Shown piece by piece: positions 30,937 through 37,996 of a stretch of 64,000 bases of DNA (the first letter of the stretch is position 1; every line of letters starts with the position of its first letter). This DNA comes from Micromonospora fulviviridis. Lineage in GTDB: Bacteria > Actinomycetota > Actinomycetes > Mycobacteriales > Micromonosporaceae. The notes below the pieces were generated by a model. It made no database searches, had not been told where the DNA came from, and saw nothing but the letters and a program-made list of their open reading frames with translations. The stretch covers positions 211,744 to 275,743 of the forward strand of contig NZ_BMRA01000009.1 of the NCBI RefSeq assembly GCF_014648395.1, in the 5' to 3' direction. The position numbers and the translations under genes are program-made.

Positions 30937-30968
30937 GCTGAGCGCTCGCCGGTGGCCCCGCGCTCAGC
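30937..30968. terminator. Bidirectional hairpin between convergent slipin and histidine kinase genes
   Basis: GCTGAGCGC and its exact complement, separated by 14 bases, lie in the 62-bp gap between the two convergent genes. They slightly overlap the kinase stop codon at 30964. Confidence 0.6.
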
Positions 30969-32574
30969 CCGGAGCCACCGGCGTCAGCTCGCCCGCCTGC
31001 TCCGGCACGCTCACCGCGGCGGCCGGCTTCGGCAGGGTGAGGACGAACCGGGCGCCGTCGGCGTACGCGTCGTCCAGCCGCAGCGTGCCGCCGTGGTACT
31101 CGACGATCTTCTTGCAGATGGCCAGCCCGATGCCGGTGCCGTCGTAGGTGCCCCGCGGGTGCAGCCGCTGGAAGATCAGGAAGATCTTGTCGGCGTACCG
31201 GGGGTCGATGCCGATGCCGTTGTCGGCCACGGCGAACTCCCAACCGGCCGTGTCCTCGGTGACCGAGATGCGGATCCGGGGCGCCTGGTCGGGGCGGCGG
31301 AACTTCACCGCGTTGCCGAGCAGGTTCTGCCAGAGCATGGTGAGCAGCGTCGGGTCGCCGTGCACCACCGGCAGCGGGTCCGCCAGGATCTCGGCGCCCG
31401 CCTCGGCGATCGGGTCGGAGAGGTTCGACTCGGCCTGGGCGAGCGTGGCGGCCAGGTCCACCTCCCGGTCGTCGCGGTAGACCCGGCCGATCCGGGAGAA
31501 CGCCAGCAGGTCGTTGATCAGGTTCTGCATCCGGGTGGCCCCGTCCACCGCGTAGTCGATGTACTGCCGGGCCCGGTCGTCGAGCTGGTCGGCGTAGCGG
31601 CGTTGCAGCATCTGGCAGAACGACGCCACCTTGCGCAGCGGCTCCTGGAGGTCGTGCGAGGCCACGTAGGCGAACTGCTCCAGGTCCTCGTTGGACCGGC
31701 GCAGCTCGGCGGCCTGCTGTTCGAGCGCGTCCCGGTGCCGGCGGCTGGTGTTCAGCGCGTCGACCACCCGCTGCCGCATGGTCTCCACGTCCGCGGTGAG
31801 CCGGGCGATGTCGGCCGGACCCTCCGGGGCGAGGCGGTGCTCGAAGTCGCCGCCGGCGACCCGCCGCACCGAGGCGCCCAGCCGGTCCAGCGGGCGCAGC
31901 ACCGTGGTCCGGACCAGCACCGAGATGACGATGCTGGACAGCAGCAGGGTGGCGAGGATCGCCACGAAGAGGAGGTCCCGCAGCGCGCGGGCCCGGTCCA
32001 GGTCCGCCCGGCCGGCCGCCTGCACCCGGTCCAGCCGGGCCTCCAGACCGGTCAGCGCGGCCTGCGCGGCGTCGAACGCGAGCCCGCTCTGCCGTACCAC
32101 CGGGGCCAGCTCCGCCGCGCTCGCGCCGGCCCGGCGGGCGGCGATCAGCCGGGTCGGGTACTCGGCCCGCCAGCGCTCCGCGAGGGCCAGCGCGGCGTCC
32201 AGCTCACGCCGCGCCGCCGGCTCGTCGGCGAGCAGGTCGCGGGCGCGCCGCGCGGTCGCGCGCTCGGCGGCCACCCCCTCCTCGTACGGGCGCAGCAGCT
32301 CCGGATCGCCGGTGATGACGTACCCGCGGACCGCCGCCACCTGCTCCAGCAGCCCGCTCTCCAGCCGGCTCACCGCGGTGCGGGCCGGGGAGATCCGGTC
32401 GGCCAGCCGGTTGGAGACCGTGGCGGTGTGGGACAGGGCCACCGCGCCGACCCCGCCGCCGGCGAGCACCAGCACGGTCATCCCGAGCATCATGACGCTC
32501 AGCCGGCGGCTCGTGGTCATCCGCGCCGCGCGACCCTCGATGACGGGTCCGTGCGCCGCTGCTGTGTTGCTCAC
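30964..32574 (-). CDS. Membrane sensor histidine kinase with CHASE3-like sensor and HAMP domain
   Basis: This 536-residue protein has a first transmembrane helix (residues about 27-48) and an extracytoplasmic helical sensor (about 50-195; ESGLLEQVAAVRGYVITGDP is CHASE3-like). A second helix (about 201-221), a HAMP domain (RPLDRLGASVRRVAGGDFEH) and a coiled coil follow. The HisKA motif is FAYVASHDLQEPLRKV, with phospho-acceptor His307, and the ATPase domain has LWQNLLGNAVKFRR, VADNGIGID and GTGIGLAICKKIV. The 'SHDLQEPLRKV' type resembles phytochrome-like kinases. No response regulator is adjacent, so it is an orphan. The GTG start at 32574 lies 7 bp after TACTGT, suggesting leaderless expression. 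Confidence 0.92.
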   Translation of the reverse strand: MSNTAAAHGPVIEGRAARMTTSRRLSVMMLGMTVLVLAGGGVGAVALSHTATVSNRLADRISPARTAVSRLESGLLEQVAAVRGYVITGDPELLRPYEEGVAAERATARRARDLLADEPAARRELDAALALAERWRAEYPTRLIAARRAGASAAELAPVVRQSGLAFDAAQAALTGLEARLDRVQAAGRADLDRARALRDLLFVAILATLLLSSIVISVLVRTTVLRPLDRLGASVRRVAGGDFEHRLAPEGPADIARLTADVETMRQRVVDALNTSRRHRDALEQQAAELRRSNEDLEQFAYVASHDLQEPLRKVASFCQMLQRRYADQLDDRARQYIDYAVDGATRMQNLINDLLAFSRIGRVYRDDREVDLAATLAQAESNLSDPIAEAGAEILADPLPVVHGDPTLLTMLWQNLLGNAVKFRRPDQAPRIRISVTEDTAGWEFAVADNGIGIDPRYADKIFLIFQRLHPRGTYDGTGIGLAICKKIVEYHGGTLRLDDAYADGARFVLTLPKPAAAVSVPEQAGELTPVAPG

Positions 32575-32580
32575 GGCAGC

Positions 32581-32586
32581 ACAGTA
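32581..32586 (-). promoter_or_regulatory. Candidate -10 element for leaderless histidine-kinase mRNA
   Basis: TACTGT on the minus strand lies six bases before the GTG start, the spacing expected when transcription begins at the start codon. No convincing -35 is seen. Confidence 0.35.
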
Positions 32587-32732
32587 ACGGAGTGTCGGGA
32601 ATGTGGCGGGAGGGTCACTCCCGTCGAGGGCCGGTGCGGCCTATAGCCGCCAGCACCGCCGATCTGGCAGGGTCGAGCAGGTCTCCCCATAGTCGCAAGG
32701 ATATCGATTACGTCTGTGATCTTAATCCAGCT

Positions 32733-34592
32733 TCAGCTGCCTATGTCTTCTAGTGTGAATACTTGGTCAGCGCTCGGATATCCGGCTCTTTCAAGCGCCT
32801 GCGTTGCCTCAGGCACGTCTGCCGTATACAGAACAATAGCCAGACTGTCCCTGGCTCTTGACGCACACACATACAGCAGCCTGCGGGTGCGCTCAATCAC
32901 GCTATCCCTTCCCTCGGCTCGATTGGTTCTGTCGGTTATCGACAAAGGCCGCAGCCCCAACAGCTTCTCGTACGAGTAGAGTGACCACGACTCCTCATTA
33001 TCATCAAGGACCACGACTACCCGAGGAAACTCTGCCCCCTTAGTCCCATGCTGAGTCGAGTATGGTGAGGCCCGATTGATGTAGGAAACGTAGCCATCCA
33101 GCTCGCCTACGTCACAGGCCATGAGCGCTTCTAGTACTGATTTCGTCGCTTCGGGAAGCGCGATGTCGTTGTCATCCCTGGAGTCCAAGAACCCGGCGAG
33201 ACGGGGATCAAGAGTTACAAGCTCCGCTTCATGAGCTATTCGGAGCACTTCTCCCATGGAACCCGGTCCTCCTTGCTGTGCAGCACGCCTTAGCGCATGC
33301 ACCGCCTCTTTGGCGGCACTTAACGCCGTGTGCACCGAGACTGACCTGAGCGCTTCATCGCTTAATGCCGTGCCGTGTCGGCGTACGACCACGGCTGGGA
33401 CATCGCTGGAGGCGCCTCTGCACAATGGGAGGATACTGTTAATCAAGGGCGTTAGCGGCCATGCATTGCCTTCGTCAAACGCCTCACTGATCGATCCAGC
33501 ACCGCGTTGATGAAACGCCGCATAAAGGTTCTCGAAGCCCAGTCGGCGCGCCGCAAGCTTGTGCATAATTAGCAAGATCTTTGCCCCGGCGGGGGGGTCA
33601 AGCGTCCAGTTTCCAGAAGCGCTGTGTGAGTCAAGCCAGGTGCGAACCCTCTTCAGGGTCGTGGTACGTTCGCTGTCGGCCGGCAAGACAAAAAAGAAGA
33701 CCTCGCCGTGGCGCTGTGCTTCTTCCGGGAGCCCCGACACCTGATGCAACCCGTCGGCGCCAGCGCGAATGTGGTTGACAACACTGAGCACCTTCAGTGA
33801 TGATCTGAAGTTCTCGGGCTTCTTTACGATCTCCCAGCCCCGCTCTGCCGGAATATCACTGATGCCACCAAAGTGGATCCTTTGCATTGGGTCGCCAAAA
33901 AATCCAAGACATATCCTGTCCGGCTGTGTACGGCGGACATGAAGGAGTGCCTCTAGGACTCGAGGTTCGGTATCTTGGCTCTCGTCAACGAAGATGAACG
34001 GAAACTTGGCCGCCACGATTCTGGACAACAAGGGCCGCGACAAGAGCATCTCAGGCACCATCGAGAGGATGTCTGAGTGTCCAACGATCCCTCGGCCGTA
34101 GTCGCCCCCGACCCCGTATGTCCACGACCGAATACTCCTGGACCCAGCGAGTTGATGGGCTCGCTTCTCTTTTGCCGCACCGGCCCTCGAGGCCCTGCGG
34201 GGATCTCCGGACGCCCCTGCCTCTGCTAGTTCGTCGATCTTCCGTTGCAGGTGACGTTGAACCCAGCCACCAATGTCTGCTTGAAACGGAGAGATTATCC
34301 TCCAAAGGAAACTGTGAATAGTTGATACATGGACCAAGGGATTACTGCCGACCTCTTGGAAGATTTCCTCCGCAGCTACCTCAGTGTAGGTAATACATGC
34401 GATCTGCTGGCCCTTTGCCGACAATACGTCGCCCTTGACTGCGGCGACGTGTGCAAGTGCTTTGACCAGGGACGTCGTCTTTCCCGAGCCTGCTCCGGCC
34501 ACAACAGAGAAGCTTGGTGATGGTTCAGACCCCAGGATCCGCTTGAGCTGTGCATCCGCATCAGTGTCAGGAGCCAACGTCCTTGCCGTCAC
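32733..34592 (-). CDS. gajB: UvrD/Rep-type SF1 helicase, GajB-like
   Basis: This 619-residue protein starts at GTG 34592, right after the TAA of the nuclease gene, with GAGGAGG 5 bp before. SF1A motifs are complete: Walker A VVAGAGSGKTTSLVKAL (about 31-47), Ia ACITYTEVAAEEIF, Ib VSTIHSFLWRII, Walker B FIFVDESQDTEP (about 199-210), III CLGFFGDPMQRIH, IV ENFRSS, V TQHGTKGAEFPRVVVVLDD and VI RRLLYVCASRARDSLAI. In Gabija, GajB senses DNA ends or single strands generated during infection and works with the GajA nuclease. It is longer than the roughly 500-aa described GajB. Composition is foreign. A generic repair helicase is possible, but the nuclease partner argues for defence. Confidence 0.85.
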   Translation of the reverse strand: MTARTLAPDTDADAQLKRILGSEPSPSFSVVAGAGSGKTTSLVKALAHVAAVKGDVLSAKGQQIACITYTEVAAEEIFQEVGSNPLVHVSTIHSFLWRIISPFQADIGGWVQRHLQRKIDELAEAGASGDPRRASRAGAAKEKRAHQLAGSRSIRSWTYGVGGDYGRGIVGHSDILSMVPEMLLSRPLLSRIVAAKFPFIFVDESQDTEPRVLEALLHVRRTQPDRICLGFFGDPMQRIHFGGISDIPAERGWEIVKKPENFRSSLKVLSVVNHIRAGADGLHQVSGLPEEAQRHGEVFFFVLPADSERTTTLKRVRTWLDSHSASGNWTLDPPAGAKILLIMHKLAARRLGFENLYAAFHQRGAGSISEAFDEGNAWPLTPLINSILPLCRGASSDVPAVVVRRHGTALSDEALRSVSVHTALSAAKEAVHALRRAAQQGGPGSMGEVLRIAHEAELVTLDPRLAGFLDSRDDNDIALPEATKSVLEALMACDVGELDGYVSYINRASPYSTQHGTKGAEFPRVVVVLDDNEESWSLYSYEKLLGLRPLSITDRTNRAEGRDSVIERTRRLLYVCASRARDSLAIVLYTADVPEATQALERAGYPSADQVFTLEDIGS

Positions 34593-36746
34593 TTAGCCCT
34601 CCTCGACGTCGGTCGCGGACGTCTCAGGCCCGAGCAGTTCGTCCGCCAGCCAGGATAAGCCGTTCACAATATAGTGAGGGGCGGCCCAAGACTCCGGATC
34701 TTTTGCGATGAGCCCCATGGCAAACGATGTCTTCTCGAATGACTTAACTCTTTTGTGCAGCTTCTCATGCAACTCGTTAGCCGCGAGTGATTCGCTTCCA
34801 CTAATGCCTAAGCCCAGCCCTTGCTGGGCGGAATCTTGGGACCATCTTAGGTTCTGTAACGCGAATGCTTCTTCGAATGTGCGCCCTGCCAGCTCTAAAC
34901 TTTCTCCATTCCATGTGACTGGCTGCTTAGTCTGGAAGGCTATACGTACCTTGCCCGCTTGGCCCTCGGCTCCCGGGGGGCACTTCTCCTTGTCGCTCAG
35001 TTCTAACAGCTCAGCAATTCCGTCTACACTGGGGAGCCAGGCTCGCAAGGTTTCGTTGGAGGTTCTTGCCTTAGCCGTCGTCGTCATGCAGGCGGAGCCC
35101 GCCTTTTGTCCTGATGCTTCATTGTCTTCTCCATATACGCTATCTAGGTCTGTAATGACGAGGGTGGTAAGCCCCAGGAACTCGAGCAGGCTCCGAAACT
35201 TGTGCGCGAAGGCGCCACCGAGCTCTAGGATCGTCAAATGGCATTGCCGAAGTGCGGGGGTCGCCTTATGGATAATTAGTGGAACTAGGAGTCGCTCGAC
35301 ATTTCCCTCGACTAAGACCGCGGCATCAGCGAAGAAGAGGTCGCAATGGGTGAGCTTTAAGTATCTCCGTATGAACTCTCTAGTTTCTTGCTCCTCGTTA
35401 TTGTGAAATGTTGAGAGGTTGCGCACGTCGCTGTGCAATATGTTGCCATCAGGGCCGGACCGCTTGAAGTATCTGATGGGCTCGAAGTTTGATTCATAGA
35501 TAACATGCGCTGAGTGTGTCGTCACGATCATCTGTGTAGTGAAGTGCAACGGCATGGGTGGAAGGATGTCGCGAATCTTCCTAATAAAGACCTGTTGCAA
35601 CTGGGCATGCAGGTGCGCCTCTGGCTCCTCAATCATAATGAGATGGATCGGTGGCGTTTCTTCAGCGACCTCCGTCCAGGCATGATGGAAGTCGAGAACT
35701 TCTACAACCATGTAGATGAGGTTCTTGAAGCCTAGGCCGTTGTAGTGATCGGGAAGCGTTGTGGTTTGACTCACATCACCGGTGCTGGTCTGAGGCAGTG
35801 CGTAGTGGACGCGGGCACTCGTATTGAGGATGCTCTCCGGGTTGAAAGAGGCCTTGATCACCAAGCTTGGGTTAGTTAGGCCGGGGTAACCTAGTTGCGT
35901 TAGCTTTTCCAGTGTTGACCCGAAGACTTTGGCAAAATGGGCATTGAGCTTTTCCTCTGATTCTGAGATGGCGTTTAGCGCCTCGAGGTCTTCGTTGCGC
36001 TTCTCCAAGTTCCTTGAATAGAACCTGCTAAGCCGTTTGGAGAGTTCCTCGGCTCGGCCGCGTGAATCCGTGTCCGTGAGGTGTCGTTGCGCACTCAGAA
36101 AGTCAACTCGGATCAGGGATTCGAGCTTCTTTGCCGATCCTGAATCGGATGATCCAAGGACGTACGGTGTATATGACTCATTCGGGTTGCCGTCATCGTC
36201 GCACTGCTGAGAGTCGAGTACCGAGTATCGAATCCCATATTCGGATCGTAGTCGCCGCGTCAGGTAGTCTGTGAGATCCTCAGGCCAGGGTTTGTAGTGC
36301 GATTCCGGTTTAAGGGCTTCGATATCGATAGCGTCTAGCGCCTCGTGAAAATTGGTTATGAGGGATAAATGGTCCCGTGGCATGTATTCCAGACGCACGC
36401 CCACAGGCTGCTCGCTATTCCACTCCAGGGTTGGGATGAAATCAACTACACGATGCAAGTTCTCGTCATCGACCACGAACCACAGGTCTAGAACGATTCG
36501 GGGTAAGCTTGTCTCTGGGTCGTCCCTCTCTGGGTTAAATTCGCTGAACTGGTTCCAGCAGTCCGCACTGAAATCGTACAGCTGGAACTGGCCCTTCTGG
36601 TTCCCGAGGAATAGTGGAAAGACGTGGGTGGCCGACGTCTTTCCACTATTGTTGGCGCCCACGAAGATCGTCGTTTCCTCGTCAAGCATGACATGGACGT
36701 TCTTGAGGCGTCGGAAATTCTTGACCCGAAACGACTTGAGGTGCAT
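34593..36746 (-). CDS. gajA: OLD-family ATPase/TOPRIM nuclease, GajA-like
   Basis: This protein of about 717 aa uses ATG 36746 (a TTG four codons upstream is possible). The N-terminal ABC-type ATPase starts MHLKSFRVKNFRRLKNV and has Walker A FVGANNSGKTSATHVF (about 29-44), a GLGFKNLIYMVVEVL signature segment, Walker B LIMIEEPEAHLHAQLQQ (near 370-386) and the switch His in IVTTHSAHVIYE. The C-terminal TOPRIM domain follows, with AAVLVEGNVERLLVP (catalytic Glu near 480) and LVITDLDSV (Asp-x-Asp near 533-535). This is the class 2 OLD layout, next to a UvrD helicase, as in Gabija, where GajA cuts phage DNA when nucleotides are depleted. It is longer than described GajA (about 580 aa). It is probably acquired by transfer. 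Confidence 0.87.
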   Translation of the reverse strand: MHLKSFRVKNFRRLKNVHVMLDEETTIFVGANNSGKTSATHVFPLFLGNQKGQFQLYDFSADCWNQFSEFNPERDDPETSLPRIVLDLWFVVDDENLHRVVDFIPTLEWNSEQPVGVRLEYMPRDHLSLITNFHEALDAIDIEALKPESHYKPWPEDLTDYLTRRLRSEYGIRYSVLDSQQCDDDGNPNESYTPYVLGSSDSGSAKKLESLIRVDFLSAQRHLTDTDSRGRAEELSKRLSRFYSRNLEKRNEDLEALNAISESEEKLNAHFAKVFGSTLEKLTQLGYPGLTNPSLVIKASFNPESILNTSARVHYALPQTSTGDVSQTTTLPDHYNGLGFKNLIYMVVEVLDFHHAWTEVAEETPPIHLIMIEEPEAHLHAQLQQVFIRKIRDILPPMPLHFTTQMIVTTHSAHVIYESNFEPIRYFKRSGPDGNILHSDVRNLSTFHNNEEQETREFIRRYLKLTHCDLFFADAAVLVEGNVERLLVPLIIHKATPALRQCHLTILELGGAFAHKFRSLLEFLGLTTLVITDLDSVYGEDNEASGQKAGSACMTTTAKARTSNETLRAWLPSVDGIAELLELSDKEKCPPGAEGQAGKVRIAFQTKQPVTWNGESLELAGRTFEEAFALQNLRWSQDSAQQGLGLGISGSESLAANELHEKLHKRVKSFEKTSFAMGLIAKDPESWAAPHYIVNGLSWLADELLGPETSATDVEEG

Positions 36747-37156
36747 AGTTCCGCCCAATGCTGAAGTCTACGAAAACCCGTTGGGTGTCCTTGCCTCAAC
36801 GGCCAACGCCAATGGGGTGCGGCCGTTGAGTCTCGCATATCCGGAGCGCTGGTCGTGGACGGATGAGTGGTACCGATGGCTGGTATTTGGACCGCATCGG
36901 ATGAGGCTCGATGGTCCTAGCCGCCGATGGTCGGCTGTACTCGGTGATAGCTAGGTCGTAGTCATGTGTCGTGCAGCCACGGAGTCCCACTGAGGCCTGA
37001 TGTTCGGAGCTCCATCAGCTGGTAGCGGCAGCCCCACCAGCATCGGCGAGAGGAACGGGCGCCGGCGCGGACCAGGCAGTCGCGCCGATGCCACCTCGCC
37101 CGCGGTCCTGCGATCCCATGCTGTGCTCACCGCACACAATGGATGTGTCGCGGCGC
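36747..37156. other. Gene-free right flank of the island
   Basis: These 410 bases lie between the GajA start and the end of the anti-sigma gene. Composition grades from moderate to high G+C. The first 40 or so bases must hold the defence-operon promoter; TAGACT on the minus strand about 20 bp before the ATG is a possible -10 without a clear -35. Short ORFs here have no coding character. I see no repeats, tRNA remnant or recombinase fragment. Confidence 0.5.
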
Positions 37157-37996
37157 TCAGTCGAGCAGCCCGCCCCCGGTGGGCAGCGGCAGACCGGGCA
37201 GCGGCAGGCCCGGCACGGAGACCGACACCGACACCGACGGCAGTGGCAGCCGGGGCAGCGGCAGCAGGGGACTGTCGGCCGGGGCGGGCGATCCGCTGGT
37301 CCCGGGCCTGGGCGAGCCGCCCGTGGAGGCGGGGCCCGGCCGGGGCGCACCGGTGCGGGTGGGGCTCGGCACGGCGGTGGGCGCGGGGGTGGCCGGGGCG
37401 GAGCCGGCCGGCGCGGCGCTCGGCGGCGCGGCCACCGCCCGGGCCGCCGCCAGGTCGCGGGCCAGCACGTCGAGCGCGGCGCCCAGCCGGGCGACCGCCG
37501 CCGGGTCCTCGACCCGGGCCAGGTCCCGGCGGGCCTGCGCGATCAGCGCCTCGGCGTCGTCGAGCCGGCCGGCGTCCAGGGCCGCGCGGGCCCGGTCGAC
37601 GGTGTCCTCGATGCCGCGCACCTCGGCCTGCTGCGGGTGCAGCAGCTTGGTCAGCGACCAGAGCGGGCTGCCCGGGCCGGCGTCGCGGCTGCTGATGCCG
37701 AGCCCGGAGACCAGGGCCAGCAGCGCCAGGGCGGCGGCCGCCAGCCGCAGCGTCCAGGGGCGGGGCCGCCGGACCGCCGGCCGCGCAGGCACCTCCTCGA
37801 CGGCGTCCGGCGCGGCGGGGCGTACCCCGGTGGGTTCCTCGGCGAGGTCGGACCGCCACGCGGCGAGCAGCCCGGCGAGCGCGTCGTCGTCGGGCGCGGG
37901 CTCGCCGCGGCCGAGCGCGTCGAGCAGCGCGTCGTCGCGGGCGATGGTCCCCAGGTCCATCGCCTCGTCGCCGTCGCCCGGCATCCGCCCGGTCAT
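37157..37996 (-). CDS. RsdA-like anti-sigma factor (SigD-binding), membrane-anchored
   Basis: This 279-residue protein overlaps the sigma-factor stop (ATGA). The N-terminal segment (IARDDALLDALGRGEPAPDD, then LAGLLAAWRSDLAEE) matches the short sigma-D-binding domain of RsdA-type anti-sigma factors. One transmembrane helix (WTLRLAAAALALLALVSGLG, about residues 81-100) is followed by an extracellular helical region (VDRARAALDAGRLDDAEALI) and a long Pro/Ser/Thr-rich tail. The tail has repeated proline-leucine and serine-valine runs. It would hold the sigma factor at the membrane until released, probably by proteolysis. Its C-terminal part is low complexity and poorly conserved. Confidence 0.85.
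   Translation of the reverse strand: MTGRMPGDGDEAMDLGTIARDDALLDALGRGEPAPDDDALAGLLAAWRSDLAEEPTGVRPAAPDAVEEVPARPAVRRPRPWTLRLAAAALALLALVSGLGISSRDAGPGSPLWSLTKLLHPQQAEVRGIEDTVDRARAALDAGRLDDAEALIAQARRDLARVEDPAAVARLGAALDVLARDLAAARAVAAPPSAAPAGSAPATPAPTAVPSPTRTGAPRPGPASTGGSPRPGTSGSPAPADSPLLPLPRLPLPSVSVSVSVPGLPLPGLPLPTGGGLLD

What the first reader, a model, noticed from the sequence alone, without database searches (positions are those of the whole stretch)
32690..37140. Low-GC defence island with a long-form Gabija-like pair
An OLD-type ATPase/TOPRIM nuclease (about 717 aa) and UvrD-like helicase (619 aa) are adjacent, same strand, with GAGGAGG-coupled translation and roughly 50% G+C in 75% G+C surroundings. 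Both proteins are more than 100 residues longer than the described GajA (about 580 aa) and GajB (about 500 aa), so this may be a divergent subtype.
Basis: partly seen in the sequence, partly recalled or inferred. Interest (0 to 1): 0.7.

Follow-up and report, generated by a model that had tools for sequence, protein, structure and literature searches.

The report
Gabija antiphage gene pair in Micromonospora
A two-gene module in a Micromonospora chromosome is a complete member of Gabija, a known bacterial defence system against viruses, and its unusual length is normal for a widespread, already catalogued branch of that system.

Summary
On the minus strand, gajA (36746-34593, 717 aa, ABC ATPase plus OLD TOPRIM) is followed directly by gajB (34592-32733, 619 aa, UvrD-like helicase). 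GAGGAGG precedes a GTG start that abuts the gajA stop. G+C is 53-57% in 69-80% surroundings.

Both proteins match PADLOC Gabija models over almost their whole length (821 bits on a 752-position GajA model; 632 bits on a 632-position GajB model), so the long form is already catalogued. The 48 aligned GajA measure 704-802 aa. All 80 kept relatives (best 80 of 144 confirmed in GTDB contigs) have the helicase directly downstream. A deposited Pf-phage record already names a 647/660-aa pair GajA/GajB. Key residues match B. cereus GajA.

The pair is an acquired cassette of about 4.5 kb. Its spot is empty in two close congeners, and 3 of 160 genus genomes carry the gene, the other two at unrelated loci. 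"Defence island" is not supported here: none of 8 flanking ORFs is a convincing defence gene.

Verdict: new member of a known kind. It is diverged from the B. cereus prototype (14-17% identity in structure alignments), but a functionally new subtype is unproven.

The parts
34593..36746 (-). gajA-like gene, 717 aa: AAA_15 ABC-type ATPase (about residues 4-419 of the 720-aa reading) plus OLD-like TOPRIM (PF20469, 474-538) and C-terminal part
   Evidence: PADLOC GajA PDLC00095 821 bits, protein 4-710 on model 1-736 of 752; Pfam AAA_15 and OLD-like_TOPRIM above cut-off; E480, D533, D535, H411 invariant in 48 of 48 aligned
32733..34592 (-). gajB-like gene, 619 aa, UvrD/Rep/PcrA-like SF1 helicase
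   Evidence: PADLOC GajB PDLC00143 632 bits, protein 1-614 on model 1-630 of 632; Pfam UvrD-helicase; DESQD box and K38 invariant in 45 of 45
34590..34604 (-). translational coupling: GAGGAGG (34604-34598), gajA stop TAA (34595-34593) abutting gajB GTG (34592-34590)
   Evidence: sequence; overlapping, abutting or up to 3-nt-apart layout in 80 of 80 relatives
36747..37156 (-). non-coding upstream stretch, 410 bp, GC rising to flank level at its far end; no promoter on the gene strand and no RNA family recognised
   Evidence: no match to 77 relatives' upstream sequences by BLASTN at 1e-3
32594..37154 (.). approximate extent of the acquired insert between a CHASE3 histidine kinase gene (30964-32574, -) and an RsdA-like anti-sigma gene (37157-37996, -); no integrase, target duplication or terminal inverted repeat recognised
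   Evidence: empty site in G022 (L087) and G009 (L088; its right flank aligns over only 166 bases before the contig ends)

Best explanation
This is a complete two-gene Gabija (class 2 OLD) antiphage system of a long-GajA lineage, acquired horizontally as a bare cassette. Most likely GajA tetramerises and binds GajB as in the solved B. cereus complex. The ATPase domain holds the TOPRIM nuclease in check at cellular nucleotide levels. GajB loads on or senses phage DNA (ends, single strands, or DNA not processed by RecBCD/AdnAB), and GajA then cuts the DNA. Shown here: gene layout, family membership, intact catalytic motifs, linked occurrence of the two genes, patchy presence with empty sites. 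Inferred from studied relatives: complex formation, nuclease activity, trigger, phage protection.
For: Near full-length top matches of both proteins to PADLOC Gabija models. 80 of 80 kept relatives have the helicase ORF directly downstream, its extrapolated start -25 to +4 from the last base of the GajA stop. GajA and GajB identities co-vary in 45 shared loci, r=0.94, best of 1000 permutations 0.13 (no unrelated gene was run as a control, so relatedness of the organisms may contribute). Residues aligned to B. cereus H320, E379, G409, D432, D434 are H411, E480, G510, D533, D535, invariant 48 of 48 (functions in PMC8136825 and PMC10781630, passages read). In the structure comparison, among the 50 rows shown, only GajA and TsOLD chains span residues 1-2 to 703-708; best is 8x5i_C, Z 15.3, 430 aligned, rmsd 5.3, 16% identity. 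Related pairs lie beside type I R-M in E. coli EC26, next to a Shedu gene on a S. meliloti plasmid, and beside a type IIG enzyme in L010. Patchy presence and empty sites.
Against: No activity was tested. Sequence similarity to the studied B. cereus proteins is weak: phmmer 35 bits for GajA, behind TsOLD at 38 bits, and 21 bits for GajB, behind UvrD at 31 bits. The GajA model is moderate (pLDDT 77, 222-254 under 50); whole-model TM-scores to GajA chains are only 0.34-0.41 by query length, and ABC/SMC heads score equally on the ATPase part. GajB scores higher against UvrD/Rep/PcrA than against GajB structures (Z 25.5 vs 18.4). No defence gene was recognised next to it in this genome. No promoter on the gene strand was recognised.
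Confidence: 0.88

Rival explanations
1. A housekeeping RecF-like/UvrD-like DNA repair pair of the genus.
For: Weak profile hits to RecF, Rep, UvrD, PcrA; UvrD/PcrA structures are GajB's best fold matches; a non-defence OLD ATPase, Cran1, exists in an archaeon (PMC12796447, start of abstract in listing).
Against: RecF, UvrD, PcrA, Rep scores are far below their curated cut-offs. Only 3 of 160 genus genomes carry it; empty sites exist; the two other genus copies lie at loci without similarity to the window's flanks.
Confidence: 0.03
2. Another OLD or ABC-ATPase defence system (PARIS AriA, retron-Eco8 or PtuA effector, class 1 OLD) mistaken for Gabija.
For: AriA model 194 bits on the ATPase half; retron-Eco8 (35 bits) and PtuA (54.5 bits) NCBIfam hits below cut-off; TsOLD is the first Foldseek hit and retron Eco8 chains are among the matches.
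Against: Gabija GajA models score up to 821 bits. The TOPRIM is fused in the same protein rather than on a separate AriB (PARIS layout recalled). A UvrD-like partner is present in 80 of 80 kept relatives. No reverse-transcriptase or HNH domain was found among the 8 flanking ORFs.
Confidence: 0.02
3. Still Gabija, but a functionally distinct subtype with a different trigger or substrate, as the reader suggested (not exclusive of the best explanation).
For: 14-17% identity to B. cereus GajA in whole-length structure alignments; a coherent lineage with 46-59% identity to the query apart from one 43% row, in organisms of several phyla by record title; PADLOC has separate models that it matches best.
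Against: The catalytic and nucleotide-sensing residues that could be aligned are retained. No additional Pfam domain. Added length is spread over several short segments in alignment to the Pf-phage GajA.
Confidence: 0.2

Closest known systems
PADLOC Gabija model clusters GajA PDLC00095/PDLC00093/PDLC00068 and GajB PDLC00143/PDLC00111
   Same: Best matches for both proteins, near full length and with similar model lengths (752/736 and 632/625); PDLC00068 is a 545-position model matched over residues 211-708
   Different: I found no experiment tied to these clusters in the three paper searches made
Gabija of Bacillus cereus VD045 (GajA 578 aa, GajB about 494 aa; PDB 8sm3, 8jqb, 8x5i)
   Same: ATPase-TOPRIM nuclease plus UvrD-like helicase; E379, G409, D432, D434 and H320 equivalents present
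   Different: 14-17% identity in structure alignments of GajA; query GajA 139 aa and GajB about 125 aa longer
Gabija pair of Pseudomonas phage PfAC02b (OR790969.1), annotated GajA 647 aa, GajB 660 aa
   Same: Collinear over the whole GajA, 24% identity, also matches the long GajA models
   Different: Different best PADLOC clusters (PDLC00065, PDLC00125)
Pair in E. coli EC26 annotated only as ATP-dependent nuclease (771 aa) and UvrD-helicase domain protein (625 aa)
   Same: 46% and 42% identity, same layout, beside type I restriction genes
   Different: 34 residues more after the DxD region of the TOPRIM part
Class 2 OLD of Burkholderia pseudomallei, C-terminal region 6nk8
   Same: TOPRIM part, Z 13.8, 178 aligned, 3.1 A, 21% identity
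   Different: Solved as the C-terminal region only; residue numbering of the solved part ends at 594, so the protein appears shorter

Membership tests
Gabija (class 2 OLD) | GajA: N-terminal ABC-type ATPase plus C-terminal TOPRIM in one protein | tested here: met
   AAA_15 4-419 and OLD-like_TOPRIM 474-538 above cut-off; GajA model 821 bits
[quoted passage not shown]
   abutting gene, GajB model 632 bits; 80 of 80 kept relatives
Gabija (class 2 OLD) | TOPRIM active site: glutamate, DxD, glycine (E379, D432, D434, G409 in B. cereus; PMC10781630) | tested here: met
   E480, D533, D535, G510 by phmmer alignment, invariant 48 of 48
Gabija (class 2 OLD) | D511 and K541 equivalents needed for B. cereus nuclease (PMC8136825) | tested here: inconclusive
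   E625 and K672 are invariant but their equivalence to D511/K541 was not aligned residue by residue
Gabija (class 2 OLD) | GajB Walker A and DEXQD box | tested here: met
   G33, G35, G37, K38, T39 and D203-E-S-Q-D207 invariant in 45 of 45
Gabija (class 2 OLD) | 4:4 GajA-GajB complex, DNA cleavage inhibited by nucleotides, phage protection | not testable with these tools
   needs experiment
PARIS (AriA/AriB) | AriA ATPase with a separate TOPRIM-type AriB (recalled) | tested here: not met
   TOPRIM fused in the same protein; partner is a helicase
Retron with OLD-type effector (class 3 OLD) | adjacent reverse transcriptase and ncRNA | tested here: not met
   no RT domain in 8 flanking ORFs; no Rfam match at gathering score in 32500-37300
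Genus-conserved RecF/UvrD repair pair | present across the genus at the same locus and above repair-family cut-offs | tested here: not met
   3 of 160 genus genomes; below NCBIfam cut-offs

The most novel reading that the evidence does not exclude
The long-GajA lineage, found in several phyla yet only 14-17% identical to the studied B. cereus GajA, is an uncharacterised Gabija subtype. Its extra segments would change what it senses, for instance DNA ends protected in actinomycetes by AdnAB rather than RecBCD (the AdnAB point is recalled, not tested).
Probability: 0.2. Interest if true: 0.45.

Novelty: new member of a known kind. Interest (0 to 1): 0.2.

Why it matters
It adds an actinomycete example of a very common defence system and shows that this lineage can move as a bare two-gene cassette of roughly 4.4-4.5 kb. 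Because the studied systems disagree on trigger (nucleotide depletion in B. cereus versus DNA ends lacking RecBCD in P. aeruginosa PA14), testing this long lineage in a lab host could show which features are general. The find itself changes no view of the field.

Tried and rejected
Rejected: repair pair, PARIS, retron effector (see rivals). Rejected: a larger defence island here. Eight flanking ORFs gave Band_7, CHASE3 histidine kinase, RsdA-like anti-sigma, ECF sigma, an ABC ATPase and two MlaE permeases, with one ORF unmatched. The ABC ATPase's mad3 (84.6 bits) and AriA (47.2 bits) PADLOC hits are read as generic ATPase similarity.

Led nowhere: mobile-element ends. No target duplication, terminal inverted repeat or flanking integrase was recognised; nearly all repeats listed in the region are short and two-copy. 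A third congener with the flanking kinase gene (G010) ends its contig near the site and cannot tell. Promoter-like sites equal the shuffled expectation (2 found, mean 2.0) and both lie on the other strand. No Rfam match at gathering score. The upstream stretch is not conserved: 21 matches at 1e-3 among 78 upstream sequences, none with the window.

Weak points kept in view: of the 80 relatives, the GajA frame of L076 is not open over its start, L079 and L080 match only part of GajA, and GajB ORFs in L045, L053 and L079 are short (426-431 aa), close to contig ends. Only the best 80 of 144 confirmed relatives were kept; 48 GajA (47 relatives) and 45 GajB (44 relatives) were aligned. The defence-neighbour scan was given 10 ORFs that I picked from the 42 listed for five loci, from four of the loci (L002, L005, L006, L010): a type IIG enzyme (L010), a C5 methyltransferase about 3.3 kb away (L005) and a weak JetD-like hit (L002); 7 of 10 had no PADLOC hit at 1e-10. 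The genus name rests on G340 contig 33 having the length and an identical 500-base block of the M. inaquosa contig NZ_QGSZ01000153.1. The order-level sample of 298 genomes found only the own genome, although the genus search found two more, so that sample is sparse.

Papers: passages read in PMC10781630, PMC8136825, PMC12407980, PMC10568477, PMC11559045; all others seen only in search listings. Not seen in those three listings: a named long-GajA subtype; the library lacks most subscription papers.

Changes at the report check: the identity to B. cereus GajA was widened from about 16% to 14-17%; the Pf-phage pair is called a deposited record; the gap wording, the missing control for the 0.94 correlation, and the better-scoring TsOLD and UvrD hits were added. 

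Full report
Observation. The minus strand of window 37156-32590 holds two abutting genes. The first encodes 717 aa (ATG 36746, stop 34593; a TTG at 36758 would give 721). The second encodes 619 aa (GTG 34592, stop 32733). GAGGAGG stands five bases before the second gene's GTG, which touches the first gene's TAA. G+C is 53.3% and 57.2%, GC3 64% and 61%, against GC3 of 97% and 95% in two flanking genes.

What it is. PADLOC profiles call the first protein GajA (821 bits, residues 4-710 on positions 1-736 of a 752-position model) and the second GajB (632 bits, residues 1-614 on 1-630 of 632). Pfam gives AAA_15 and OLD-like_TOPRIM for the first and UvrD-helicase for the second. NCBIfam retron, RecF, Rep, UvrD and PcrA models score far below their cut-offs. 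Against solved structures by sequence, B. cereus GajA is matched at 35 bits, just behind TsOLD (38 bits), and GajB at 21 bits, behind E. coli UvrD (31 bits). Predicted models: GajA pLDDT 77 and GajB 86. Foldseek ranks TsOLD first for GajA, then GajA chains, with low whole-model TM-scores. Among the 50 rows shown by the structural aligner, only GajA and TsOLD chains cover the whole GajA model; the best is 8x5i_C with Z 15.3, 430 aligned residues, rmsd 5.3, 16% identity. ABC/SMC heads score the same on the ATPase half. GajB resembles UvrD, Rep and PcrA more strongly (Z up to 25.5) than solved GajB (8sm3_B, Z 18.4).

Active sites. The phmmer alignment puts B. cereus H320, E379, G409, D432 and D434 opposite H411, E480, G510, D533 and D535. 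All five are invariant in 48 of 48 aligned proteins, as is Walker A K36. In GajB K38 and the DESQD box are invariant in 45 of 45. In B. cereus, E379A abolishes cutting and H320A partly relieves ATP inhibition (PMC8136825, passages); E379 with D432, D434 and G409 forms the nuclease site (PMC10781630, passages). Nuclease and nucleotide-sensing machinery therefore look intact; activity itself is inferred.

Length. The 48 aligned GajA measure 704-802 aa and the 45 aligned GajB 579-652 aa. The GajA models listed for the query run from 372 to 752 positions. A Pseudomonas Pf phage record names a 647/660-aa pair GajA and GajB, and its GajA aligns collinearly with the query, with the extra residues scattered in several short stretches. 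Residue-level placement against B. cereus GajA over the whole protein was not obtained; the structural tool gives ranges only.

Distribution. In GTDB r220 contigs 144 stretches encode relatives; the best 80 were kept. All 80 have a GajB-like ORF directly downstream on the same strand, its extrapolated start between 25 bases before and 4 after the last base of the GajA stop; three of these ORFs are short. Pairwise identities of GajA and GajB over 45 shared loci correlate at 0.94 (highest of 1000 permutations 0.13), as expected of a co-inherited pair, though no unrelated gene served as control. Matches to GajA, many of them remote, occur on 376 of 72,556 plasmid records, 100 of them covering at least 80% of the query, and on 5 of 50,697 phage records, 2 of them covering at least 80%. 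E. coli EC26 carries a 771/625-aa pair beside type I restriction genes; it was one of 5 of 5426 E. coli genomes with a partial DNA match to a Serratia relative. On a S. meliloti plasmid the next listed gene is a Shedu nuclease. In a scan of 10 ORFs picked from four actinomycete loci, 3 of 10 had PADLOC hits (type IIG enzyme, C5 methyltransferase, weak JetD-like).

Acquisition. The genus is Micromonospora, because genome G340's contig 33 matches the M. inaquosa contig in length and in a 500-base block. A search of 160 genus genomes finds the gene in 3 (own, G340, G409) at E <= 1e-50. An earlier sample of 41 genomes gave only remote OLD-like or ATPase hits besides the own copy, in 3 genomes. In G022 the flanking histidine kinase and anti-sigma genes sit next to each other with only a short spacer where the window has about 4.5 kb; G009 shows the same, with 166 bases of right flank before its contig ends. 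G340 and G409 share an 88.7% identical 4355-bp block that covers the two genes plus about 280 bp upstream. In the 16-17 kb fetched around each, the flanks match neither each other nor the window. The unit thus appears to travel as a bare two-gene cassette. How it inserts is unknown, since no ends, duplications or integrase were recognised.

How it works. The best-supported picture is Gabija: a GajA tetramer with GajB attached, with a nuclease inhibited by high nucleotide levels (review PMC10568477, passages). Two triggers are in print. One is nucleotide depletion (B. cereus). The other is linear DNA not handled by RecBCD, with a non-abortive outcome, in P. aeruginosa PA14 (PMC12407980, passages). 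Nothing here decides between them for this pair. That Micromonospora relies on AdnAB rather than RecBCD is recalled, not tested.

Judgement. The pair is a real, apparently intact, horizontally acquired Gabija system of a long-GajA lineage that databases already cover: a new member of a known kind. It is diverged from the B. cereus prototype and may differ in detail, but length alone is not evidence for a new subtype. Low interest.

Noticed in passing
L083 769-2640 and L084 976-2805 (Micromonospora genomes G024, G017): OLD-like ATPase/TOPRIM genes of 623 and 609 aa, distant from the query (about 30% over part). The 3.5-kb stretches are too short to say whether a helicase partner follows, so class 1 OLD is only a guess.
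   Followed up: partly
L085 580-3027 (genome G028): An ABC ATPase gene followed by a gene with an HNH-like motif, resembling a Septu (PtuA-PtuB) pair by eye; not profile-tested.
   Followed up: no
L123 5600-9953 and L124 6812-11166: An 88.7% identical gajAB cassette plus about 280 bp upstream in two Micromonospora genomes with no shared flanks in the stretches fetched, suggesting cassette-precise transfer without a recognised mobile element.
   Followed up: partly
L010 4455-5945: A gene with a REP_ORF2-G2P replication-protein match lies directly upstream of gajA in Mycobacterium gordonae, which may mean carriage on an integrated plasmid-like element.
   Followed up: no
window 37182-37260: Short imperfect GC-rich direct repeats (22-nt family, spacing 15 and 42) at the 3' end of the anti-sigma gene, near the insertion boundary.
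   Followed up: no
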